DNA from: Stenotrophomonas sp. SAM-B
GTDB lineage: Bacteria; Pseudomonadota; Gammaproteobacteria; Xanthomonadales; Xanthomonadaceae
Direction: 5' to 3'
Assembly (NCBI RefSeq): GCF_013387485.1
Contig: NZ_JABBXB010000002.1
Coordinates: 630,405 to 694,404, forward strand
Length of the DNA: 64,000 nucleotides
The position numbers and the translations under genes were made by a program. Positions 29,635-40,268 of the stretch are shown piece by piece. Each line of letters starts with the position of its first letter. The stretch's first letter is position 1. The notes under the pieces are model-generated. The model was not told where the DNA came from and did not search any database. It saw only the letters and a program-made list of their open reading frames with translations.

Positions 29635-31515
29635 ATGTCCAGCGTACTCTCCACCGGCACCAGCGCCCTGCTCGCCTTCCAGCGGGCGCTGGCGACCACC
29701 AGCCATAACGTCGCCAACATCAAAACGCCGGGCTACAGCCGGCAGAAGGTGGACTTCGCCACGGCCGACCCGCAGAACTACGGGTACGGCGACGTGGGCA
29801 ATGGCACCCGCATCACCGATGTCCGCCGCGTCGCCGATCAGCTGGCGATCTCGCGGCTGCTCGATGGCAGCGGCGAACTGGCGCGCCTGAAGCAGCTCTC
29901 CACCATGGCCGACCGTGTCGATGCGATGTTCTCGGACAAAGCCACCAACGTCGCCGGCGTCTGGTCGAACTTCTTCGATTCGGTCAGCGGGCTCTCCTCC
30001 AATGCCTCCGGCAGCGCCGACCGGCAGAACATGCTGGACAGCGGCAAGACCCTGGCCAACCGCTTCCAGCAGCTCAATACCCAGCTCAACAACCTCAACG
30101 GCGAGGTCAACAACGGCCTGATCGCCGGTGCCACCGAGATCAACCGGCTGGCCCAGGAAATCGCCCAGCTCAACGGCGCGATCGGGGGCAATGCGGCGAC
30201 CGCCGCACCGGACCTGCTCGACCGCCGCGACCAGCTGATCGCCAATCTCGTCGGCTACACCGGCGGCACCGCGGTGATGCAGGACGGCGGGCTGATGAAC
30301 GTCTACACCGCCGGTGGGCAGGCGCTGGTGGTCGGCACGACGGCCTCCAAGGTCACCACCGTGACCGACCCCTACCAGCCCGAGCGGCTGCAGCTGGCGC
30401 TGGAAAGCCAGGGCCAGAAGATCACCATCGAGGGCAAGACGCTCGGCGGCCAGATCGGCGGCCTGCTGGAGTTCCGCGACACGGTGCTGACCCCGGCCCA
30501 GGCCGAGCTGGGCAAGCTGGCGATCGGCATGGCCAGCAGCTTCAACGATGTCCACCGCCAGGGCGCGGATCTGTACGGCAACATGGGCGGTGACTTCTTC
30601 ACCATCGGCAACCCGCGCATCACCGCCAACAGCGCCAACACCGGCACGGCCAGCATGAGCGCCAGCTTCGGTGATCTGTCCAAGCTGGACGGCCAGAACA
30701 TCGTGATGAAGTTCGATGGCACCCAGTGGCAGGCCACGCGCGCCGACACCGGCGCCAGCATTCCGATGACCGGCAGCGGCACCGCGGCCGACCCGCTGGT
30801 CCTCAATGGCGTCTCGCTCGTCATGAGCGGCACGCCGGCCAAGGATGACCGCTTCCTGCTGCAGCCCACCGCAGGCGTGGCCGGCGGCATGGAGGTGGCG
30901 ATCACCGACACCTCCCGCATCGCCGCCGCCGCACCGATCAAGGGCACCGCCGCGATGGCCAACACCGGCAGCGGCAAGCTGACCGGCGTCAAGGTGACCG
31001 ATCCCGACAACGCCGCGCTGCGCAATCCGGCGGCGATCGTGTTCACCAGCGCCACCGAATACACCATCAACGGGGTCGGCCCGAACACCTACACCGCCGG
31101 CCAGACCATCACCGCGAACGGCTGGAGCTTCGTCCTCGATGGCGCGCCCAAGCTGGGCGACACCTTCAACATCGGGCCGACCCCGGCCGGCTCCTCGGAC
31201 AACAGCAACGCCCTGCTGCTGGCCAAGGTCGAGCAGGCCAAGACTTTCAATGACGGCACGGTCACACTCAGTGGCGCGCTGGGCGGCCTGACCACCCAGG
31301 TCGGTGCGGCCGCCCGTTCCGCGGAGTATTCCCTGCAGGCACAGCAGGTGATCACCGACCAGGCCCAGGCCGCACGCGACTCGATCTCCGGCGTGAACCT
31401 GGATGAAGAGGCCTCGGACATGCTCCGCCTGCAGCAGGCCTACCAGGCCGCCTCGCAGCTGATCTCCACGGCCGACAACATGTTCCAGACCATCCTCGGA
31501 GCCGTCTCGCGATGA
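29635..31515 (+). CDS. flgK: Hook-filament junction protein FlgK (HAP1)
   Basis: A 626-aa junction protein. The N terminus has the axial-family signature (STGTSALLAFQRALATTSHNVANIKTPGYSRQKVDF), a long variable middle follows, and the C terminus reads SGVNLDEEASDMLRLQQAYQAASQLISTADNMFQTIL, diagnostic of FlgK. It is a FlgN client. Its stop overlaps the flgL ATG (ATGA), so the two junction proteins are coupled. Confidence 0.98.
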   Translation: MSSVLSTGTSALLAFQRALATTSHNVANIKTPGYSRQKVDFATADPQNYGYGDVGNGTRITDVRRVADQLAISRLLDGSGELARLKQLSTMADRVDAMFSDKATNVAGVWSNFFDSVSGLSSNASGSADRQNMLDSGKTLANRFQQLNTQLNNLNGEVNNGLIAGATEINRLAQEIAQLNGAIGGNAATAAPDLLDRRDQLIANLVGYTGGTAVMQDGGLMNVYTAGGQALVVGTTASKVTTVTDPYQPERLQLALESQGQKITIEGKTLGGQIGGLLEFRDTVLTPAQAELGKLAIGMASSFNDVHRQGADLYGNMGGDFFTIGNPRITANSANTGTASMSASFGDLSKLDGQNIVMKFDGTQWQATRADTGASIPMTGSGTAADPLVLNGVSLVMSGTPAKDDRFLLQPTAGVAGGMEVAITDTSRIAAAAPIKGTAAMANTGSGKLTGVKVTDPDNAALRNPAAIVFTSATEYTINGVGPNTYTAGQTITANGWSFVLDGAPKLGDTFNIGPTPAGSSDNSNALLLAKVEQAKTFNDGTVTLSGALGGLTTQVGAAARSAEYSLQAQQVITDQAQAARDSISGVNLDEEASDMLRLQQAYQAASQLISTADNMFQTILGAVSR

Positions 31516-32714
31516 ACAACCGCATTTCCACCGGCATGATGTTCAATCAGTCGGTGTCCCTGATGCTTGCCTCGCAGGCGAAGATGAGCCACCTCGAGCG
31601 CCAGATCGCCACCGGCAGCAAGATCGTGTCGGCCAAGGACGATCCGGTCTCGGCCGGCAGCGCGGTCGGCTTGGACCGTACCCTGGCCTCGCTGGACCGC
31701 ATGCAGCTCAATGCCGGCAACGTGCAGAACCGGCTCGGCCTGCAGGAAAACGCGCTGGCCCAGGTCGGCGACATGATGGGCCGCATCACCGAGCTGACCA
31801 TCTACGCCAACAACCCCGGGCTGGCCGCGGCCGACAAGCAGTCCCTGGTCACGGAAATCGAGGCGATCCGCGGCAATCTGCTCGCGGTCGCCAACAGTAC
31901 CGACGGCACCGGCCGCTATCTGTTCGGTGGTACGGATGATGGCAGCCCGCCGTTCAGCCAGGTCGATGGTCGCGTCGTCTACAACGGCGACCAGAACCAG
32001 CGCCAGGTCGAAGTCGGCCCGGACACCTACGTGCAGGATGCCCTGCCCGGCAGCGAGATTTTCATGCGCATCGTCACCGGCGACGGGCATGTGGACGGCA
32101 AGGCGGGCGTCGGCAATACCGGCAAGGGCGTGCTGACCAACGTCACCCGCGACGGCGATGGCAGCTGGAACGGCGAAGGCTTCAGCGTGCGCTTCACCGC
32201 CGCCGATGCCTACGATTTGCTGGATGCCGGCGGCAACGTGGTGTCCAGCGGCACTCTGAAGGCCGGCGACGACGTGGTGGTCAACGGCGTGCGCCTGCAT
32301 ATCGACGGTGCGCCGGCGGCGGGTGACACCTTCGAGGTCAGCCCGGCCGCCAGCCGCGACATCTTCGGCACGCTGGATTCACTGATCGGCGCACTGAAGA
32401 TGGATACCGGCACCCCCGCCCAGCAGGCGGCCCAGCAGAACCTGCTGCAGAGCGGCCTGCGCGACGTGGCCCGTGCCTCGGAGCGCATGATCGACTCACG
32501 CGCCGCCGGCGGTGCCCAGCTCAAGGCGCTGGACAACGCGTCCGACATGCGCGAATCGAACGTCGTCACGCTCAAGACCACGCTCTCGCAGATGCGCGAC
32601 CTGGACTACGCGGACGCACTGAGCCAGTACCAGCTGGAGAAGACCGCCCTGCAGGCGGCGCAGACCCTGTTCTCGCAGATGCAGTCCATGTCGCTGTTCA
32701 ACATGATCCGCTGA
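31512..32714 (+). CDS. flgL: Hook-filament junction protein FlgL (HAP3)
   Basis: A 400-aa flagellin-like junction protein: N terminus NNRISTGMMFNQSVSLMLASQAKMSHLERQIATGSKIVSAKDDP, and the C-terminal flagellin-type helix (ESNVVTLKTTLSQMRDLDYADALSQYQLEKTALQAAQTLFSQMQSMSLFNMI). It is the last gene of the flg block, overlapping flgK by four bases, with a strong terminator 26 bp after the stop. Confidence 0.97.
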   Translation: MNNRISTGMMFNQSVSLMLASQAKMSHLERQIATGSKIVSAKDDPVSAGSAVGLDRTLASLDRMQLNAGNVQNRLGLQENALAQVGDMMGRITELTIYANNPGLAAADKQSLVTEIEAIRGNLLAVANSTDGTGRYLFGGTDDGSPPFSQVDGRVVYNGDQNQRQVEVGPDTYVQDALPGSEIFMRIVTGDGHVDGKAGVGNTGKGVLTNVTRDGDGSWNGEGFSVRFTAADAYDLLDAGGNVVSSGTLKAGDDVVVNGVRLHIDGAPAAGDTFEVSPAASRDIFGTLDSLIGALKMDTGTPAQQAAQQNLLQSGLRDVARASERMIDSRAAGGAQLKALDNASDMRESNVVTLKTTLSQMRDLDYADALSQYQLEKTALQAAQTLFSQMQSMSLFNMIR

Positions 32715-32740
32715 CCGCTCCTACACCCTGGGTTGGCCTG

Positions 32741-32774
32741 AAGGCCGCGATGCATTGAGCATCGCGGCCTTTTT
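32741..32774 (+). terminator. Intrinsic terminator of the flg operon
   Basis: A perfect 11-base stem, GGCCGCGATGC (32743-32753) and GCATCGCGGCC (32759-32769), with loop ATTGA, ends in TTTTT. It isolates the flg operon from the flagellin array. Confidence 0.93.
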
Positions 32775-32836: not shown

Positions 32837-32863
32837 TAAAGGTTGTTGACAAAGCGCCGTTAT
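32837..32863 (+). promoter_or_regulatory. FliA (sigma28) promoter of the flagellin array
   Basis: TAAAGGTT (32837-32844), an 11-bp spacer and GCCGTTAT (32856-32863). The start is expected near 32870, giving an A-rich leader of about 87 nt with an AAGGGAG ribosome site before ATG 32957. No comparable promoter was seen before the other three flagellin genes. Confidence 0.85.
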
Positions 32864-32956: not shown

Positions 32957-34123
32957 ATGGCACAGGTAATCAACACCAATACGATGTCGCTCAACGCTCA
33001 GCGCAACCTGAGCACCAGCGGCAACTCGCTCGCTACCACCATCCAGCGCCTGTCGTCGGGCCTGCGCATCAACAGCGCGAAAGACGACGCCGCCGGCCTG
33101 GCCATCAGCGAGCGCTTCGGCACCCAGATCCGCGGCACCGATGTCGCGATCCGCAATGCCAACGACGGCATCTCGCTGGCCCAGGTCGCCGAAGGCTCCC
33201 TGAGCGAAATCGGCAACAACCTGCAGCGCGTCCGCGAACTGGCCGTGCAGGCGTCCAACGCGACCAACTCCGCCAGCGACCGCAAGGCCCTGCAGGCCGA
33301 AGTCACCCAGCTGGTCAGCGAAATCGACCGCGTCGCCAAGCAGTCCGACTTCAACGGCACCAAGCTGCTGGACGGCAGCTTCACCAGCCAGCTGTTCCAG
33401 GTCGGCGCCAATGCCGGCCAGGCCATCGCCATCAACAATGTCGTCGATGCCAAGGCCAGCTCGCTGGGCAACGCCAAGTTTGCCGCACCGGTCGACAGCA
33501 CCGCCGACGTCGGCACCATCACCGACCTGGCCGGGGTGACCATCAACGGCGCGGCCATCGGCACCATCACCGGCAAGACCACCGCCGAGTTTGCCGCCTC
33601 CGCCGCCGCCCAGATCAACAGCAAGATCGGCGAAGCCGGTGTCTATGCCGAAGTGGTCACCACCGCCGGCACCCCGGACACCCACCGCCTGAAGCTGACC
33701 TCGGTCCAGGCCGACCGCGACCTGGTCATCGACGGCGCCGCCCAGCTCGGCCTGGCCGATTCCACCGCCGCCGCGCCCAGCTCGGTTGCCGCCACCGCGA
33801 CCTCCAGCTTCGTGCAGGACCTGGACGTCTCGTCCTACGTCGGCGCACAGAAGGCCCTGGAAATCGTCGACAAGGCACTGGAATCGGTCAACAGCGTGCG
33901 CGCCGACCTCGGCGCCATCCAGAACCGCTTCACCTCCGTCGTCGCCAATCTGCAGACCTCCTCGGAAAACCTGTCCGCTTCGCGCAGCCGCATCCGCGAC
34001 ACCGACTTCGCCAAGGAAACCGCAGAGCTGACCCGCACCCAGATCCTGCAGCAGGCCGGTACGGCCATGCTGGCCCAGGCCAACCAGGTGCCGCAGAACG
34101 TGCTCAGCCTGTTGCAGCGCTGA
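32957..34123 (+). CDS. fliC: Flagellin 1
   Basis: A 388-aa filament subunit. Conserved D0/D1 arms (about 1-165 and 295-388) flank a short variable middle; the N arm carries LSSGLRINSAKDDAAGLAIS and the C arm ends SRIRDTDFAKETAELTRTQILQQAGTAMLAQANQVPQNVLSLLQR. It is the most divergent of the four tandem copies: GLRIN where the others have GSRIN, SLSEI for SLTEI, an extra Gln before the terminal Arg, and many synonymous differences. It stands directly behind the only clear sigma28 promoter of the array. The symbol fliC is generic; numbering of paralogs is by position. Confidence 0.97.
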   Translation: MAQVINTNTMSLNAQRNLSTSGNSLATTIQRLSSGLRINSAKDDAAGLAISERFGTQIRGTDVAIRNANDGISLAQVAEGSLSEIGNNLQRVRELAVQASNATNSASDRKALQAEVTQLVSEIDRVAKQSDFNGTKLLDGSFTSQLFQVGANAGQAIAINNVVDAKASSLGNAKFAAPVDSTADVGTITDLAGVTINGAAIGTITGKTTAEFAASAAAQINSKIGEAGVYAEVVTTAGTPDTHRLKLTSVQADRDLVIDGAAQLGLADSTAAAPSSVAATATSSFVQDLDVSSYVGAQKALEIVDKALESVNSVRADLGAIQNRFTSVVANLQTSSENLSASRSRIRDTDFAKETAELTRTQILQQAGTAMLAQANQVPQNVLSLLQR

Positions 34124-34195
34124 CATGAGCCGCTCCTGAAGCACGTCATGAGCGTCTAACCCAACTCACGTGCAACCGCTCAAGGACCTCTTCCC

Positions 34196-35389
34196 ATGGC
34201 ACAAGTCATCAACACCAATACGATGTCGTTGAATGCTCAGCGTAACCTGAGCACCAGCGGCAGCTCCCTGGCCACCACCATCCAGCGCCTGTCGTCCGGT
34301 TCGCGCATCAACAGCGCCAAGGACGACGCGGCTGGCCTGGCGATCTCCGAGCGCTTCGGCACCCAGATCCGCGGCACCGACGTGGCCATCCGCAATGCCA
34401 ACGACGGCATCTCGCTGGCCCAGGTCGCCGAAGGTTCGCTGACCGAAATCGGCAACAACCTGCAGCGCGTCCGTGAACTGGCCGTGCAGGCGTCCAACGC
34501 CACCAACTCGGCCAGCGACCGCAAGGCCCTGCAGGCCGAAGTGACGCAGCTGGTCAGCGAAATCGACCGCGTGGCCAAGCAGTCCGACTTCAACGGCACC
34601 AAGCTGCTGGACGGTTCGTTCTCCAGCCAGCTGTTCCAGGTCGGTGCCAACGCCGGCCAGGCGATCGCCATCGACAAGGTCGTGGATGCCAAGGCCAACG
34701 CGCTGGGCGGCGCGAAGTTCGACAGCAACTCGCTGGCGCTGCTCGATCCGGGCACGAATGCCGACTTCAAGACCAGCGGCATGAAGATCAACGGCGTAGA
34801 CATCGCCAATGTCGACGTCAAGCAGGGCGCTGATGCCGCCGCTACCGGCAAGGCCTCGCGTGAAGCGCTGGTCAGCGCGATCAACGCCAAGATCGGTGAA
34901 ACCGGCGTCTACGCCGAAGTCAACGGCACCGCCGGCGTCACCCTGACCTCGGTCAAGGACAGCGTCAACACCGACGGCACCTTCAAGGCGATCACCGCGA
35001 CCCCGGGCACCTGGACCGGTGGTGCGGCAGCGCCGACCTTCACCGCCACCCTGGCCACCGCCGCACCGGCCAACGAGTATGCCAGCGACCTGGATGTCAG
35101 CACCGTCAAGGGTGCACAGCAGGCACTGGAAATCGTCGACAAGGCGCTGGGTTCGATCAACAACACCCGCGCCGACCTCGGTGCCATCCAGAACCGCTTC
35201 ACCTCGGTCGTGGCCAACCTGCAGACCTCCACGGAGAACCTGTCCGCATCGCGCAGCCGCATCCGCGATACCGACTTCGCCAAGGAAACCGCAGAACTGA
35301 CCCGCACCCAGATCCTGCAGCAGGCCGGTACGGCCATGCTGGCCCAGGCCAACCAGGTGCCGCAGAACGTGCTCAGCCTGCTGCGCTGA
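34196..35389 (+). CDS. fliC: Flagellin 2
   Basis: A 397-aa flagellin, the longest of the four. Its arms are almost identical, at DNA level too, to flagellins 3 and 4 (about the first 160 and last 65 codons). The middle (about 165-320) is unique, with the segments DPGTNADFKTSGMKINGVD and ATPGTWTGGAAAPTFTATL. It lies 72 bp after flagellin 1 with an AGGACC ribosome site and no visible promoter of its own, so it is probably read from the promoter before flagellin 1. Confidence 0.97.
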   Translation: MAQVINTNTMSLNAQRNLSTSGSSLATTIQRLSSGSRINSAKDDAAGLAISERFGTQIRGTDVAIRNANDGISLAQVAEGSLTEIGNNLQRVRELAVQASNATNSASDRKALQAEVTQLVSEIDRVAKQSDFNGTKLLDGSFSSQLFQVGANAGQAIAIDKVVDAKANALGGAKFDSNSLALLDPGTNADFKTSGMKINGVDIANVDVKQGADAAATGKASREALVSAINAKIGETGVYAEVNGTAGVTLTSVKDSVNTDGTFKAITATPGTWTGGAAAPTFTATLATAAPANEYASDLDVSTVKGAQQALEIVDKALGSINNTRADLGAIQNRFTSVVANLQTSTENLSASRSRIRDTDFAKETAELTRTQILQQAGTAMLAQANQVPQNVLSLLR

Positions 35390-35404
35390 TCCACGCCTGC
35401 CGCG

Positions 35405-35429
35405 TCGGCGCCGGTCTGACCGGCGTCGA
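35405..35429 (+). other. Stem-loop between flagellins 2 and 3
   Basis: TCGGCGCCGGT (35405-35415), loop CTG and ACCGGCGTCGA (35419-35429) form an 11-base stem with one G-U pair, 15 bp after the flagellin 2 stop. No U-tract follows, so it looks like a processing or 3'-protection element rather than a terminator. Confidence 0.6.
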
Positions 35430-35470
35430 CCCCGACGTCCCGTGTTCCACCCACGCCTGAAGGAACTCCC

Positions 35471-36649
35471 ATGGCACAAGTCATCAACACCAACACGATG
35501 TCGTTGAATGCTCAGCGCAACCTGAGCACCTCCGGCAGTTCGTTGGCCACCACCATCCAGCGCCTGTCGTCCGGTTCGCGCATCAACAGCGCCAAGGACG
35601 ACGCGGCTGGCCTGGCGATCTCCGAGCGCTTCGGCACCCAGATCCGCGGTACCGACGTGGCCATCCGCAATGCCAACGACGGCATCTCGCTGGCCCAGGT
35701 CGCCGAAGGTTCGCTGACCGAAATCGGCAACAACCTGCAGCGCGTCCGTGAACTGGCCGTGCAGGCGTCCAACGCGACCAACTCCGCCAGCGACCGCAAG
35801 GCCCTGCAGGCCGAAGTCACTCAGCTGGTCAGCGAAATCGACCGCGTCGCCAAGCAGTCTGACTTCAACGGCACCAAGCTGCTGGACGGTTCGTTCTCCA
35901 GCCAGCTGTTCCAGGTCGGCGCGAACGCCGGCCAGGCGATCGCCATCGACAAGGTCGTGGATGCCCGCGTCGAGTCCCTGGGCACCAGCACCTTCGCCAC
36001 CGGCGCCACGGCTGCCGTTGCCGCGGTCGCCACCGACGTGCGCTTCGGCGGCAAGGTGATGGGCGTGGATATCGGCACGGTCGAGGTCAAGAATGGCGCC
36101 ACCGTCGGTGACGCCGCCAAGGCGATCGCCACCGCGATCAACGGCAAGATCGGCGAAGCCGGCATCTACGCCGAAGCCAACACCGACGGCACGCTGAAGC
36201 TGTCGTCGGTCAAGGAAGGCAAGGCTGTCGTTGCCGCAGACATCGCCCTGACCCGCAGCAACTACCAGGCGGCGACCACCGACTGGAGCGCCGCTGCGGC
36301 CACCAGCGCGTACACCGCCGGTACCGCCACCGATGCCAACGCACAGAAGCTGGATGTCAGCTCGGTGCTGGGCGCACAGCAGGCGCTGGAGATCGTCGAC
36401 AAGGCGCTGGGTTCGATCAACAACACCCGCGCCGACCTCGGCGCCATCCAGAACCGCTTCACCTCGGTTGTGGCCAACCTGCAGACCTCCACGGAGAACC
36501 TGTCCGCATCGCGCAGCCGCATCCGCGATACCGACTTCGCCAAGGAAACCGCAGAGCTGACCCGCACCCAGATCCTGCAGCAGGCCGGTACGGCCATGCT
36601 GGCCCAGGCCAACCAGGTGCCGCAGAACGTGCTCAGCCTGCTGCGCTGA
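35471..36649 (+). CDS. fliC: Flagellin 3
   Basis: A 392-aa flagellin with the shared D0/D1 arms and a unique middle (about 165-315) that includes TAAVAAVATDVRFGGKVMGVD and SNYQAATTDWSAAAATSAYTAG. The C-terminal arm is the same as in flagellin 2. An AAGGAAC ribosome site precedes ATG 35471. The 81-bp gap to flagellin 2 holds a stem-loop but no sigma28 or sigma54 promoter that I can see. Confidence 0.97.
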   Translation: MAQVINTNTMSLNAQRNLSTSGSSLATTIQRLSSGSRINSAKDDAAGLAISERFGTQIRGTDVAIRNANDGISLAQVAEGSLTEIGNNLQRVRELAVQASNATNSASDRKALQAEVTQLVSEIDRVAKQSDFNGTKLLDGSFSSQLFQVGANAGQAIAIDKVVDARVESLGTSTFATGATAAVAAVATDVRFGGKVMGVDIGTVEVKNGATVGDAAKAIATAINGKIGEAGIYAEANTDGTLKLSSVKEGKAVVAADIALTRSNYQAATTDWSAAAATSAYTAGTATDANAQKLDVSSVLGAQQALEIVDKALGSINNTRADLGAIQNRFTSVVANLQTSTENLSASRSRIRDTDFAKETAELTRTQILQQAGTAMLAQANQVPQNVLSLLR

Positions 36650-36665
36650 TCCCGTTTGATCCGAA

Positions 36666-36685
36666 GGCGCCGGGCAACCGGCGCC
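36666..36685 (+). other. GNRA-capped stem-loop between flagellins 3 and 4
   Basis: GGCGCCGG (36666-36673), a GCAA tetraloop and CCGGCGCC (36678-36685): a perfect eight-base stem capped by a very stable loop, 17 bp after the flagellin 3 stop. The bases that follow (GCTTCC) are not a U-tract. Confidence 0.62.
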
Positions 36686-36728
36686 GCTTCCACCGCAACA
36701 CGCTCCACGTACGCCTGAAGGAAACCCC

Positions 36729-37886
36729 ATGGCACAAGTCATCAACACCAACACGATGTCGTTGAATGCTCAGCGCAACCTGAGCACCTCCGGCAGCTCG
36801 CTGGCCACCACCATCCAGCGCCTGTCGTCCGGTTCGCGCATCAACAGCGCCAAGGACGACGCGGCTGGCCTGGCGATCTCCGAGCGCTTCGGCACCCAGA
36901 TCCGCGGCACCGACGTGGCCATCCGCAATGCCAACGACGGCATCTCGCTGGCCCAGGTCGCCGAAGGTTCGCTGACCGAAATCGGCAACAACCTGCAGCG
37001 CGTCCGTGAACTGGCCGTGCAGTCGTCCAACGCGACCAACTCCGCCAGCGACCGCAAGGCCCTGCAGGCCGAAGTGACCCAGCTGGTCAGCGAAATCGAC
37101 CGCGTCGCCAAGCAGTCCGACTTCAACGGCACCAAGCTGCTGGACGGTTCGTTCTCCAGCCAGCTGTTCCAGGTGGGCGCCAACGCCGGCCAGGCGATCG
37201 CCATCGACAAGATCGTGGATGCCACGACTGCCAAGCTCGGCACCTCCACGTTCGCTACCGGCAAGGTCGCCACCGCGGATGCTGATCTGACCGCCGATGC
37301 GACGTTGTCCGGCACCATCAAGGTCGGCTCGACCACCGTCAACCTCGACAAGATCGAACTGAAGAGCGGTGCGACCGTCGCCGATCAGAACAAGGCCGCG
37401 GTTACTGCCATCAACTCCAAGCTCGGCGAGACCGGTGTGCTTGCGGAGTTGAATGACGCCGGCGAGATCGTGGTCACCCAGGTGAAGGATGGCATTGCAA
37501 TGACCGATGCCGACATCACCATCACCGGCCCGGCAGGCTTCGATCACACGGCCGACGCTGCTGTGACCACCGCCAACGTCGCGAATCTGGATGTCTCGAC
37601 GGTGACGGGTGCGCAGAAGGCCCTGTCGCTGGTCGACAACGCCCTGAGCTCGATCAACAACACGCGCGCCGACCTCGGCGCTGTCCAGAACCGCTTCACC
37701 TCGGTTGTGGCCAACCTGCAGACCTCCACGGAGAACCTGTCGGCCTCGCGCAGCCGCATCCGCGATACCGATTTCGCCAAGGAAACCGCAGAGCTGACCC
37801 GCACCCAGATCCTGCAGCAGGCCGGTACGGCCATGCTGGCCCAGGCCAACCAGGTGCCGCAGAACGTGCTCAGCCTGCTGCGCTGA
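36729..37886 (+). CDS. fliC: Flagellin 4
   Basis: A 385-aa flagellin, the shortest copy. The N arm is the same as in flagellins 2 and 3 apart from QSSNAT for QASNAT. The middle (about 165-310) is Asp/Thr-rich and distinct (TADADLTADATLSGTIKVGSTTVNLDKIELKSGATV spans it). The inner C arm also departs (QKALSLVDNALSSINNTRAD) before the common ending. An AAGGAAA ribosome site precedes ATG 36729. A UUCG hairpin and a true terminator follow. Confidence 0.97.
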   Translation: MAQVINTNTMSLNAQRNLSTSGSSLATTIQRLSSGSRINSAKDDAAGLAISERFGTQIRGTDVAIRNANDGISLAQVAEGSLTEIGNNLQRVRELAVQSSNATNSASDRKALQAEVTQLVSEIDRVAKQSDFNGTKLLDGSFSSQLFQVGANAGQAIAIDKIVDATTAKLGTSTFATGKVATADADLTADATLSGTIKVGSTTVNLDKIELKSGATVADQNKAAVTAINSKLGETGVLAELNDAGEIVVTQVKDGIAMTDADITITGPAGFDHTADAAVTTANVANLDVSTVTGAQKALSLVDNALSSINNTRADLGAVQNRFTSVVANLQTSTENLSASRSRIRDTDFAKETAELTRTQILQQAGTAMLAQANQVPQNVLSLLR

Positions 37887-37905
37887 TCCACGGCTGCATC
37901 GTCCC

Positions 37906-37929
37906 CGCCGCCGGCTTCGGCCGGCGGCG
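37906..37929 (+). other. UUCG-capped stem-loop after flagellin 4
   Basis: CGCCGCCGGC, loop TTCG, GCCGGCGGCG: a perfect ten-base stem capped with the C(UUCG)G tetraloop, 19 bp after the stop codon. It is followed by GC-rich sequence rather than T's, so it probably protects or punctuates the mRNA upstream of the real terminator at 38114. Confidence 0.62.
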
Positions 37930-37966
37930 CGGGCAACCCGAGGCATCGCAAAGCACGCGCAGGAAC

Positions 37967-38113: not shown

Positions 38114-38142
38114 CCCTCCTCTGCATTGGAGGAGGGTTTTTT
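38114..38142 (+). terminator. Intrinsic terminator of the flagellin array
   Basis: CCCTCCTC (38114-38121) pairs with GAGGAGGG (38129-38136) around a seven-base loop and is followed by TTTTTT. It lies 228 bp after flagellin 4 and ends the array before the fliD promoters. Confidence 0.93.
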
Positions 38143-38340: not shown

Positions 38341-39723
38341 GTGGCGGACTTCGGTTACGGCGGCATCGGTTCAGGACTGGATATTTCCGGCATGGTCAGC
38401 AGCCTGGTGGCAGCCGATCGCAAGCCGGCGGACAACGCACTGAACCTGCAGCAGTCCAAGGCCAAGATGCAGCTCTCGGCGATCGGCACGGTCAAATCCG
38501 CGTTCGACACCCTGAACACGGCGCTGAAGGCGCTGAAGGCGAATACGGCCTTCGATGCCCGCACGTTCACGGCCAGCAAGCCCGGCACCGACGAGATCTT
38601 GACGGTCAGCGGGACGAATTCTGCGGCGGCGGGCACCCACCTTGTCAACGTGGAAAAGCTGGCTACCGCACACAAGCTGATCTCAAACACCGAGATACCG
38701 AAAACAGACACGTTCGGCGCCGGAACCCTGACGCTCACCGTTGGCGTCGGCGATAAGCAGAAGACGCTGAACATCAACGTCGAAGCCGACGACACGCTCA
38801 GCTCGATCCGGACGAAGATCGAGAAAGCCGGCCGCGCCTCGGGCGTACAGGCCACGCTCATCGCGTCTGGCGATAACCAGATTCTGTCCCTCTCGCAGGA
38901 GAAGTCGGGCGCCGCCAACGCCATCACGCTGACTGCCGCACCAGGCAATACCAAGCTGGCCGACCTCGCTGCCAGTCTGAAGGAGCGTACGCCGGCCGCA
39001 GACGCCAAGCTGACCATCGACGGCGTGGCAATCACCAGCAGCGAAAACACCGTCACTGACGTGGTGCCCGGCCTCACCCTGAACCTGAAGAAGGAAGGCG
39101 AAAGCACCGTCACCATCAGTACCGACGTCGCCGCCGCGCGCAAGGTGATGCAGGACTTCGTCACCGCCTACAACGGCGCCATCGCGGCGATCAACACCGC
39201 GACCAAGTACGACATCGAGAACAAGGAACCGTCCTCGCTGACCGGCGATGCCCAGATGCGCGGCGCTTCCAGCCAGCTGCGCAGCATGATGGGCGGCATC
39301 CTCAAGGATCTCTCGGCCGCCGGCCTGGACCCCAAGAAGATCGGCCTGCAGACCCGCGCCTATCCCAACGCCGATGGCAGCCTGGTGCTGGATACCGCCA
39401 AGTTCGACGCGGCCCTGGTCAATCAGGGTGGCGCGGTACGCGAAGCCTTCACCGGCGATGACGGTGCAGCGGCCAAGCTGTTTGCCATGGTCGACGGCTA
39501 TGTCAGCACCACCGTGGGCAAGGAAGGCGCGTTCGTCTCGCGCACCACGAGCCTCAACACCACGCTGACCGACATCGACAAGCGCCGCAAGGCGCTGGAT
39601 GTGCGCATGGAAGGCGTGTCCGAGCGTTACAAAAAGCAGTTCCTCGCGCTCGACGCGCTGATGAGCAAGATGAGCCAGACCATGACCAGCCTCACCTCGC
39701 AGCTCTCGCAGCTCAGCGGCTGA
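38341..39723 (+). CDS. fliD: Flagellar filament cap protein FliD (HAP2)
   Basis: FliD caps the filament and folds incoming flagellin. The 460-aa product begins VADFGYGGIGSGLDISGMVSSLVAADR, the FliD N-terminal domain, and ends with the C-terminal coiled region (TSLNTTLTDIDKRRKALDVRMEGVSERYKKQFLALDALMSKMSQTMTSLTSQLSQL). Start choice: GTG 38341 has an AGGAG ribosome site seven bases upstream and aligns with the family start; the ATG at 38248 lies inside the promoter region. fliS follows 128 bp later. Confidence 0.97.
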   Translation: MADFGYGGIGSGLDISGMVSSLVAADRKPADNALNLQQSKAKMQLSAIGTVKSAFDTLNTALKALKANTAFDARTFTASKPGTDEILTVSGTNSAAAGTHLVNVEKLATAHKLISNTEIPKTDTFGAGTLTLTVGVGDKQKTLNINVEADDTLSSIRTKIEKAGRASGVQATLIASGDNQILSLSQEKSGAANAITLTAAPGNTKLADLAASLKERTPAADAKLTIDGVAITSSENTVTDVVPGLTLNLKKEGESTVTISTDVAAARKVMQDFVTAYNGAIAAINTATKYDIENKEPSSLTGDAQMRGASSQLRSMMGGILKDLSAAGLDPKKIGLQTRAYPNADGSLVLDTAKFDAALVNQGGAVREAFTGDDGAAAKLFAMVDGYVSTTVGKEGAFVSRTTSLNTTLTDIDKRRKALDVRMEGVSERYKKQFLALDALMSKMSQTMTSLTSQLSQLSG

Positions 39724-39851
39724 TCGATCGCGGCAGCGGACTCAAGTTGAACTGGCCCGCTGCCGATATCACTGGCAGGACACCCCGCAGGCTCCACCCG
39801 GTGCCGACGATGTCGCGAACCTCGCGGCCCCGCATGAAGGAGACATGATTG

Positions 39852-40268
39852 ATGTACGGTTCCAACCGTCAATTCACCGAGCAGTACCGCAAGGTCGGCG
39901 TGCAGAGTTCGGTTACCGATGCCGACCCGCACAAGCTGGTGGCGCTGCTGCTGGCCGGTGCCTGCGAACGCCTTCGTCTCGCGCTGGCCTGCATGGAACG
40001 TGGCGACCAGGCGCGCAAAGGCAAGGCGATCGGCGAGGTCTGTGCGATCGTCGGCCATCTCAACGGCTCGCTGGACCATGAGGCCGGCGGCGAAATCGCG
40101 GGCAATCTGTCCTCGCTGTACGACTACGTGATGCACCGGCTGACCGAAGCCAACCTGCACAACGATCCGGCCGCGTTGACCGAAGCCCTCGAGCTGCTCG
40201 GCGAGATCGACGCCGCGTGGAATGCCATCCCCCAGCAGCAGCGCCAGACTGCGCAGGCCGCCCCGTGA
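39852..40268 (+). CDS. fliS: Flagellin export chaperone FliS
   Basis: FliS binds the C-terminal helices of flagellin in the cytoplasm and prevents early polymerisation. The 138-aa product has the family start MYGSNRQFTEQYRKVGVQSSVTDADPHKLVALLLAGACERL and the helical C-terminal half with NLSSLYDYVMHRLTEANLHND. ATG 39852 is preceded by GAAGGAG; a TTG one codon earlier is also in frame. Four flagellins from this cluster are its likely clients. The stop overlaps the next gene's GTG. Confidence 0.97.
   Translation: MYGSNRQFTEQYRKVGVQSSVTDADPHKLVALLLAGACERLRLALACMERGDQARKGKAIGEVCAIVGHLNGSLDHEAGGEIAGNLSSLYDYVMHRLTEANLHNDPAALTEALELLGEIDAAWNAIPQQQRQTAQAAP

What the first reader, a model, noticed from the sequence alone, without database searches (positions are those of the whole stretch)
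32957..37886. Four tandem flagellin genes with homogenised ends and distinct middles
The array encodes four flagellins of 388, 397, 392 and 385 aa. Copies 2-4 share long runs of identical DNA in both arms, silent sites included, while their surface-exposed middles are unrelated. Copy 1 has the same protein arms but many silent differences. The pattern fits repeated gene conversion of the arms in copies 2-4 with diversification of the exposed domain, a substrate for recombinational filament variation.
Basis: seen in the sequence. Interest (0 to 1): 0.72.

Follow-up and report, generated by a model that had tools for sequence, protein, structure and literature searches.

The report
Flagellin array with swappable surface domains
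This Stenotrophomonas genome carries four flagellin genes in a row whose near-identical ends appear to let their variable surface domains be exchanged with those of other species, and likely crossover points of one such exchange can still be seen in the sequence.

Summary
In detail: four tandem flagellins (388, 397, 392, 385 aa) between flgL and fliD, near-identical arms, divergent middles. Arms of copies 2-4 are homogenised (silent divergence 0.07-0.11; copy 1 against them 0.24-0.27); over 36 genomes the nearest arm relative of a downstream copy lies in its own genome for 40 of 80 (shuffles: mean 1.2, maximum 6). But the middles do not diversify in place. They are mostly old classes shared between species, on average under purifying selection, and are replaced wholesale: in 11 of 14 close pairs at least one middle is at most 61% identical while arms stay at 95-100%. 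The window's own array looks like such an exchange: flanks match a sister genome, the body another lineage, with switches at 33061-33079 (copy 1 N arm) and 37793-37893 (end of copy 4). Copy 1 is a separate lineage whose middle class was never found downstream (0 of 25 classes). The published inference that these genes duplicated after speciation is not supported here. Replacement of flagellin centres by recombination is known (E. coli, Salmonella); candidate donors and boundaries visible inside a tandem array are the new part.

The parts
31512..32714 (+). flgL (hook-filament junction protein), upstream neighbour; sister-like (90-94% to L046)
   Evidence: Pfam Flagellin_N/C, weaker than in the four flagellins
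32740..32772 (+). terminator-like hairpin after flgL
   Evidence: pattern match only
32837..32863 (+). sigma-28-type promoter TAAAGGTT-N11-GCCGTTAT, only match to the strict pattern in the window (consensus recalled)
   Evidence: in S. maltophilia KJ only the segment upstream of fliC1 had significant promoter activity (PMC8998449)
32957..34123 (+). flagellin copy 1 (388 aa), middle class D, separate position-1 lineage (L36, T143, ends LLQR)
33061..33079 (.). left switch interval: informative sites upstream match sister L046, downstream mostly L009
34124..34195 (+). spacer 1 (72 bp), position-specific, conserved across species
34196..35389 (+). flagellin copy 2 (397 aa), middle class C
35390..35470 (+). 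spacer 2 (81 bp) with GC-rich hairpin
35471..36649 (+). flagellin copy 3 (392 aa), middle class B; close relative of PDB 9atl
36650..36728 (+). spacer 3 (79 bp), position-specific: 92% and 84% identical in L007 and L008, which carry another middle class at position 3
36729..37886 (+). flagellin copy 4 (385 aa), middle class F (found at position 3 in L007 and L008)
37793..37893 (.). right switch interval in the conserved 3' end of copy 4: mostly L009-like before, sister-like after
38114..38136 (+). terminator-like hairpin before fliD
   Evidence: pattern match only
38341..39723 (+). fliD (filament cap), downstream neighbour, sister-like
   Evidence: Pfam FliD_N/FliD_C
39849..40268 (+). fliS (flagellin export chaperone)

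Best explanation
The locus is the flagellin operon of a Stenotrophomonas whose nearest named flgL relatives include S. rhizophila strains. It is probably expressed from one sigma-28 promoter and its products probably co-assemble into one filament (both inferred from S. maltophilia). The D0/D1 arms are held nearly constant by function and, in copies 2-4, by recombination. Because copies and related species share these arms, homologous recombination with incoming DNA can start in one arm and end in another and replace what lies between: a single surface domain, or a block of genes with their spacers (mosaics shown, mechanism inferred). The surface domains form a genus-wide pool of mostly old classes found in different species and at different downstream positions. 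Copy 1 is kept apart: its arms have diverged and its middle classes were never found downstream. The window's array was exchanged with an L009-like lineage between the N arm of copy 1 and the C-terminal end of copy 4, leaving the promoter, flgL and fliD of its own lineage; the window as recipient is the simplest reading. What selects for new surfaces (phages, protists, host immunity) is not shown.
For: Shared classes: 196 full flagellins in 83 loci give 25 middle classes with at least two members (>=70% identity, >=85% coverage) and 50 singletons; B, E and H each occur at positions 2, 3 and 4. Close pairs: in 11 of 14 at least one middle is <=61% identical while arms are 95-100%, e.g. L007 [D C F E] against L009 [D C B E], each on a contig of 4.6-4.8 Mb. 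Mosaic in the window: sister L046 matches flgL 90-94%, upstream spacer 94%, last spacer 95%, fliD 91-94%, but the middles of copies 1-3 only 50-51%; L009 matches those middles 90-96%, spacer 1 99%, spacer 3 94%, but flgL only 83-85% and fliD 63-84%. Switch points: Fisher P=4.5e-11 left (0.0026 on well-aligned sites alone) and 1.1e-7 right (cuts chosen after seeing the sites, so optimistic). Against same-class pairs of similar flgL divergence (dS 0.4-0.6) the window-L009 middle-to-flgL ratio ranks 1 of 52 (D), 9 of 74 (C) and 4 of 112 (B), while L010, closer to the window in flgL (0.37), is farther in D (0.56) and B (0.66). Further mosaics: L027 and L083. Transfer: class C L023/L027 middle dS 0.034 against flgL 0.41 and fliD 0.44. 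Homogenised arms: 40 of 80 nearest neighbours in the same genome, shuffles mean 1.19, maximum 6. Copy 1 separation: 0 of 25 classes mix position 1 with later positions, shuffle minimum 11.
Against: Arm homogenisation is not universal: within-genome downstream arm dS is 0.409 in L011, 0.361 in L020 and 0.27-0.29 in L012, L046 and L080; 40 of 80 copies have their nearest arm in another genome, 27 of these with the same middle class; 22 of 106 contrasts go the other way. Part of the arm likeness is constraint: codon bias is stronger in the window's arms (Nc 26.2) than in its middles (29.3) or flgL (30.6), and arms are also close between species. Recent transfer is the minority: of 639 same-class middle pairs with both flanks above dS 0.25, 58 have a middle dS below half the lower flank value, 39 of these in position-1 classes A and D whose silent sites may be constrained, and 292 exceed the lower flank. 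Inside the exchanged stretch of copy 1's N arm 9 of 30 informative sites match the sister, and 18 of 52 before the right cut. Window-L009 middles still differ by dS 0.12-0.31, so L009 is not the direct donor. Copy 4's class F is not in L009 and is as far from L007/L008 as background (dS 0.64-0.67); its source is unknown. Sister L046's array may itself have been replaced, which would also produce the switch points. Spacer 2 is only 78% L009-like. In the pair L080/L012 spacer 2 is 80% identical although no middle was replaced, so a changed spacer alone does not prove a block exchange.
Confidence: 0.8

Rival explanations
1. Within-genome gene conversion of arms alone, with the middles diversifying in place under positive selection.
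For: Arms of copies 2+ are closer within than between genomes (0.121 against 0.232).
Against: The same middle classes recur in other species and at other positions; median dN/dS within the seven largest classes is 0.17-0.39; close relatives differ by whole-domain replacement, not accumulated changes.
Confidence: 0.06
2. Recent tandem duplication after speciation, as inferred for S. maltophilia from clustering of flagellins by species (PMC8998449).
For: Downstream copies of one genome often cluster by their arms; copy number varies: of 64 complete arrays one has 1 (a Xanthomonas), 23 have 2, 29 have 3, 10 have 4, one has 5. The three H copies of L091 and L092 could be recent duplicates.
Against: Spacers 1, 2 and 3 differ from each other within a genome yet are recognisable by position between species, and middle classes are shared between species. 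Recent duplicates would share spacers and middles.
Confidence: 0.05
3. Constraint only: strong codon selection in a highly expressed gene makes all arms look alike without recombination.
For: Lower Nc in arms than in middles or flgL (26.2 against 29.3 and 30.6); arms vary little between species as well.
Against: Copy 1, in the same operon, differs from copies 2-4 at silent arm sites by 0.24-0.27; same-genome neighbours far exceed shuffles; mosaics.
Confidence: 0.06
4. Assembly artefact: short-read misjoins between near-identical arms.
For: The window genome has 65 contigs; eight fetched loci, from five distinct genomes, have runs of N in the array, and other draft contigs end inside it.
Against: Longest internal repeat in the window array is 222 bp; spacers sit in their usual positions; the same architecture is seen in single-contig genomes such as G026 and G043.
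Confidence: 0.02
5. Programmed phase variation (inversion or cassette switch) choosing among four flagellins.
For: Tandem direct copies with long identical arms.
Against: One promoter-pattern match, all four genes in one direction; no invertase or recombinase domain among the nine neighbouring proteins scanned, one of which had no Pfam match; of 63 inverted-repeat pairs between 31000 and 40500 the 25 longest, 17-27 nt, are all imperfect.
Confidence: 0.03

Closest known systems
fliC1-fliC2-fliC3 operon of Stenotrophomonas maltophilia KJ (PMC8998449; abstract, introduction, sections 2.1, 2.4 and Discussion read)
   Same: Same place between flgL and fliD, near-identical ends, variable centres; operon driven from upstream of fliC1; all three flagellins contribute to the filament; gene number varies between strains.
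   Different: Four copies here. That paper inferred duplication after speciation and does not, in the sections read, report shared domain classes, position-specific spacers or domain replacement.
Hypervariable-region (H-antigen) replacement in E. coli and Salmonella fliC (PMC7018530; abstract, passages and section 13 read)
   Same: Conserved ends, centres in discrete divergent forms, exchange by recombination with ends in the conserved regions.
   Different: There the authors report no forms shared between Escherichia and Salmonella, no retained crossover boundaries for the arrival of new forms, and no known outside donors; here species share forms and switch points are visible, in a tandem array.
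Concerted evolution of duplicate flagellin genes: Campylobacter fla genes (Meinersmann and Hiett 2000, seen only as a reference in PMC5126078) and Alteromonadales fla (PMC6053082, passages read)
   Same: Paralogues more alike within a genome than orthologues between genomes.
   Different: Here only the arms of downstream copies behave so, and not in every genome; middles and copy 1 do not. PMC6053082 could not exclude independent tandem duplication; position-specific spacers argue against that here.

Membership tests
Bacterial flagellin (FliC) | Flagellin_N and Flagellin_C above Pfam cut-off in all four proteins | tested here: met
Bacterial flagellin (FliC) | Helical ends and a separate middle domain | tested here: met
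   AlphaFold2 model of copy 3: helices 2-34, 37-100, 106-138 and 299-391, strands between 173 and 289; mean pLDDT only 66.5; solved relative 9atl
Bacterial flagellin (FliC) | Assembly into a working filament | not testable with these tools
   shown by others for the S. maltophilia three-gene operon (PMC8998449)
Concertedly evolving paralogues | Copies 2+: paralogues closer within genome than between genomes at silent arm sites | tested here: met
   40 of 80 nearest neighbours within genome, shuffles maximum 6; 84 of 106 contrasts; exceptions L011, L012, L020, L046, L080
Concertedly evolving paralogues | Copy 1: same | tested here: not met
   0 of 36
H-antigen-type flagellin with hypervariable-region replacement | Close relatives with strongly divergent centres and near-identical ends | tested here: met
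   11 of 14 close pairs
H-antigen-type flagellin with hypervariable-region replacement | Antigenic (serotype) difference between forms | not testable with these tools
   needs a binding assay
Invertase-type phase variation | Recombinase gene and long inverted repeats at the locus | tested here: not met
   (nine neighbours scanned)

The most novel reading that the evidence does not exclude
Tandem flagellin arrays in Stenotrophomonas may work as a genus-wide exchange platform for filament surface domains: homogenised downstream arms are recombination handles, redundancy of copies buffers motility while a new domain is tried, and a first copy that does not trade domains with the others keeps the filament working. 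Surface domains would then behave like a shared allele pool across species, and the steps of hypervariable-domain turnover reported as invisible in E. coli and Salmonella (donor, crossover points, change of position) could be followed here.
Probability: 0.35. Interest if true: 0.75.

Novelty: new variant of a known kind. Interest (0 to 1): 0.56.

Why it matters
Flagellin centres show extreme diversity, perhaps greater than any other protein (abstract of PMC7018530), and how a new centre enters a species is open: the E. coli/Salmonella analysis found neither outside donors nor boundaries (section 13). Here candidates for both are visible in one genus, with a near-identical middle (silent divergence 0.03) in two species whose neighbouring genes differ by about 0.4 substitutions per silent site. 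It also warns that clustering of flagellins by species does not date duplications, because arms evolve in concert, and it separates a conserved first flagellin from a replaceable set, which ordinary deletions can test.

Tried and rejected
Rejected: (1) recent duplication, by spacers and shared classes; (2) giant flagellins of 616-772 aa suggested by an early ORF pass: these read through runs of N in draft assemblies, and the affected genes were dropped from then on; (3) invertase-like switching; (4) positive selection in the middles as the main driver: median dN/dS well below 1; (5) reading the two-copy pairs L061/L034, L064/L031 and L086/L097 as proof of domain-only swaps: L086 and L064 share a 99% identical spacer even at flgL dS 0.22, so a block exchange cannot be told from a domain exchange there. 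The sigma-70 scan found no promoter-like site.

L091, L092 and L059 (11 flagellins) lacked the C-arm anchor used, so 36 of 39 genomes with at least three full flagellins were counted; neighbours from genomes with flgL dS of 0.1 or less were left out of that count; two-copy genomes were not in it. L038 and L045 were left out of arm and close-pair counts, L063 of the latter as well. Sites where the window matches neither L046 nor L009 were not counted, and much of the left upstream stretch is poorly alignable to L009. The 106 contrasts, 3108 distances and 14 pairs are not independent (L083, L021 and L027 form three of the pairs, L013, L015 and L019 two). The family search was used only for a side remark.

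Not achieved: strain-level variation (one genome per species held); proof of direction of the window exchange; source of middle F. The AlphaFold model is only moderate, so the exposed-middle statement rests on the flagellin family and the solved relative; it was not fold-searched.

Full report
WHAT IS THERE. The window lies on a 4.25-Mb, 65-contig genome of the genus Stenotrophomonas, judged by its nearest named flgL loci: S. maltophilia 13146 and S. rhizophila USBA GBX 843 at 95%, S. rhizophila BIGb0145 at 94%. A strict sigma-28-type pattern, recalled, matches once in the 64 kb, upstream of copy 1 (32837-32863; none in 100 shuffles). In S. maltophilia KJ the equivalent three genes are one operon and only the segment upstream of fliC1 showed significant promoter activity (PMC8998449).

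ARMS. Silent divergence of the arms is 0.074-0.108 among copies 2-4 and 0.242-0.268 between copy 1 and the others. Of 39 genomes with at least three full flagellins, 36 could be used (116 flagellins). For downstream copies the nearest arm relative lies in the same genome for 40 of 80; shuffled genome labels give a mean of 1.19 and a maximum of 6 in 300 shuffles. For copy 1 it is 0 of 36; all 36 have their nearest relative at position 1 elsewhere. Mean silent distances: within genomes among downstream copies 0.121, between genomes 0.232; copy 1 between genomes 0.200; copy 1 to downstream copies of its own genome 0.313. Where two genomes share two downstream middle classes, arms are closer within the genome in 84 of 106 comparisons; 22 go the other way. 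So downstream arms evolve in concert, but incompletely: L011, L020, L012, L046 and L080 have downstream arms differing by 0.27-0.41, and 27 of the 40 downstream copies with an outside nearest neighbour share its middle class. Part of the likeness is constraint, since codon bias is stronger in the window's arms than in its middles or flgL (Nc 26.2, 29.3, 30.6).

MIDDLES. Across 83 non-duplicate loci (196 full flagellins, three loci outside the genus) the middles fall into 25 classes with two or more members and 50 singletons. The window's array reads D C B F. Others read D C B E (L009), D C F E (L007, L008), D B I P (L006, L071), A C B (11 loci), A E B, A C E, A J E, D E G and so on. B, E and H each occur at positions 2, 3 and 4; C and J only at position 2. 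No class mixes position 1 with later positions (0 of 25; shuffling which copy is first gives a mean of 17.1 and a minimum of 11). Within the seven largest classes median dN/dS is 0.17-0.39. Most shared middles are as old as the species: of 639 same-class pairs with both flanks above dS 0.25, 292 have a middle dS above the lower flank value and only 58 below half of it, 39 of them in classes A and D. The middles are therefore mostly old, constrained, shared forms, not domains diversifying in place.

REPLACEMENT. I compared 14 pairs of close genomes (flgL dS below 0.21, fliD dS below 0.31, equal copy number; three loci excluded), each genome standing for one species. Arms are 95-100% identical in all 14; in 11 of 14 at least one middle is below 75% identity, the lowest of each being 49-61%. 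Examples: L007 against L009 differ at position 3 (F against B, 53%) and partly at position 4 (73%); L071 [D B I P] against L072 [D J E G] differ in all three downstream middles; L083 [A J L] against L021 [A E B] in two. The sequences just outside the array stay at 93-100% in these 11 pairs. Inner spacers are changed in some (66-83% in L083/L021, L083/L027, L071/L072, L077/L078 and L078/L024; 89% for spacer 3 in L007/L009) and kept in others (99% for spacer 2 in L021/L027). A changed spacer alone is no proof of a block exchange: in L080/L012 spacer 2 is 80% identical though no middle was replaced. Both block and single-domain replacement probably occur. In three two-copy pairs (L061/L034, L064/L031, L086/L097) copy 1's middle is replaced as well; in the other eight it is kept (93-98%).

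THE WINDOW'S OWN ARRAY IS A MOSAIC. Against sister L046 the window is 90-94% identical in flgL, 94% in the upstream spacer, 95% in the last spacer and 91-94% in fliD, but only 50-51% in the middles of copies 1-3. Against L009 it is 83-85% in flgL and 63-84% in fliD, but 96, 90 and 91% in those middles and 99% and 94% in spacers 1 and 3; spacer 2 is 78%. At sites where L046 and L009 differ and the window matches one of them, it follows L046 at 73 of 78 up to 33061 and L009 at 21 of 30 from 33079. Much of the upstream stretch aligns poorly to L009; on well-aligned sites alone it is 6 of 6 against 9 of 30 sister-like (P=0.0026). On the right it follows L009 at 34 of 52 up to 37793 and L046 at 34 of 38 from 37893 (P=1.1e-7). 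The cuts were placed after seeing the sites, so these P values are optimistic. The switches lie in the outermost arms. A replaced array in L046 would give the same switches, so I asked whether window and L009 are unusually close inside: among same-class pairs with flgL dS 0.4-0.6 their middle-to-flgL ratio ranks 1 of 52 (D), 9 of 74 (C) and 4 of 112 (B). L010, nearer to the window in flgL (0.37 against 0.50), is farther in its D and B middles (0.56 and 0.66 against 0.12 and 0.31). So an exchange between the window's and L009's lineages is likely, the window being the simpler recipient; it is not recent, and L009 is not the direct donor. Copy 4 carries class F, which L009 lacks; its source is unknown.

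OTHER MOSAICS. L027 has the chassis of L021/L083 (flgL 97%, copy 1 96-100%, downstream spacer 99%, fliD 92-93%), but its copy-2 and copy-3 middles are 98% and 97% identical to L023, whose flgL is 89% and fliD 79-87% (class C middle dS 0.034 against flgL 0.41 and fliD 0.44). Spacer 2 is 100% to L023 but also 99% to L021, so it does not discriminate. L083's copy-2 middle is 96% identical to L016, against 73% to its own sister L021, while flgL, the downstream spacer and fliD match L016 at 77-84%.

COPY 1. In the 36 genomes counted, copy 1 ends LLQR (36 of 36) where downstream copies end SLLR (80 of 80), and has L36 (34 of 36) where they have S36 (80 of 80). It keeps its own arms and its own middle classes. 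In KJ, cells with FliC1 alone had normal-looking flagella but did not swim significantly, and FliC1 helped when mixed with the others (PMC8998449 Discussion); a distinct structural role is plausible but untested here.

STRUCTURE. Copy 3 aligns over its whole length with PDB chain 9atl_A, 392 aa, 677 bits. An AlphaFold2 model of copy 3 (mean pLDDT 66.5) shows helical ends and a strand-rich middle. That the classes change the outer part of the filament subunit rests on the flagellin family more than on the model.

WHAT IS KNOWN. Recombinational replacement of flagellin centres is established for Salmonella and E. coli; the 2020 survey states that the two genera share no forms, that crossover boundaries of arriving forms are not retained, and that outside donors have not been seen (PMC7018530, passages and section 13). 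Concerted evolution of flagellin genes is known (PMC6053082 passages; Meinersmann and Hiett 2000 seen only as a reference). Eight full-text searches listed, among the 10-20 rows shown for each with titles and the start of abstracts, no paper describing this exchange in Stenotrophomonas; subscription literature is mostly outside the library. The 2022 S. maltophilia paper inferred duplication after speciation from clustering by species; shared middle classes and position-specific spacers argue against that in this genus.

VERDICT.

Noticed in passing
window 34124-34195, 35390-35470, 36650-36728, 37887-37961: Each flagellin is followed by a predicted hairpin, GC-rich in spacers 2-4 and weaker in spacer 1; in the relatives folded the stem sits at a similar place, often with different sequence (e.g. 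spacer 2 of the window against L013). It might set relative yields within the operon.
   Followed up: partly
window 33044-33109 and counterparts in copies 2-4: The flg22-type peptide (name recalled) differs between copy 1 (GLRINSAKDD, 34 of 36 genomes) and downstream copies (GSRINSAKDD, 80 of 80).
   Followed up: partly
window about 38527-39047: This part of fliD is far more variable than its last 600 bases (window against L009 63% and 84%), so the filament cap may also exchange or diversify.
   Followed up: no
L052: A record titled Bacillus subtilis SK7B5 carries a Stenotrophomonas-type flgL and flagellin array: probably mislabelled or contaminated.
   Followed up: no
L032, L036, L042, L044, L063 (and duplicates L047, L057, L066): Runs of N in the flagellin array of draft assemblies; read through, they mimic giant flagellin ORFs, and copy number in drafts is unreliable.
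   Followed up: yes
L091, L092: Arrays [O H H H]: three downstream copies of one middle class in one genome, unlike the mixed arrays elsewhere.
   Followed up: no
L038: A five-flagellin array with five singleton middles in a more distant genome of the genus.
   Followed up: no
G096, G147, G106 (other genera of the family): Two or more strong Flagellin_C matches close together on one contig, so tandem flagellins are not confined to this genus.
   Followed up: no
L045, L096: Arrays containing short flagellin ORFs (71 aa; 253 and 160 aa), perhaps decaying copies or assembly errors.
   Followed up: no
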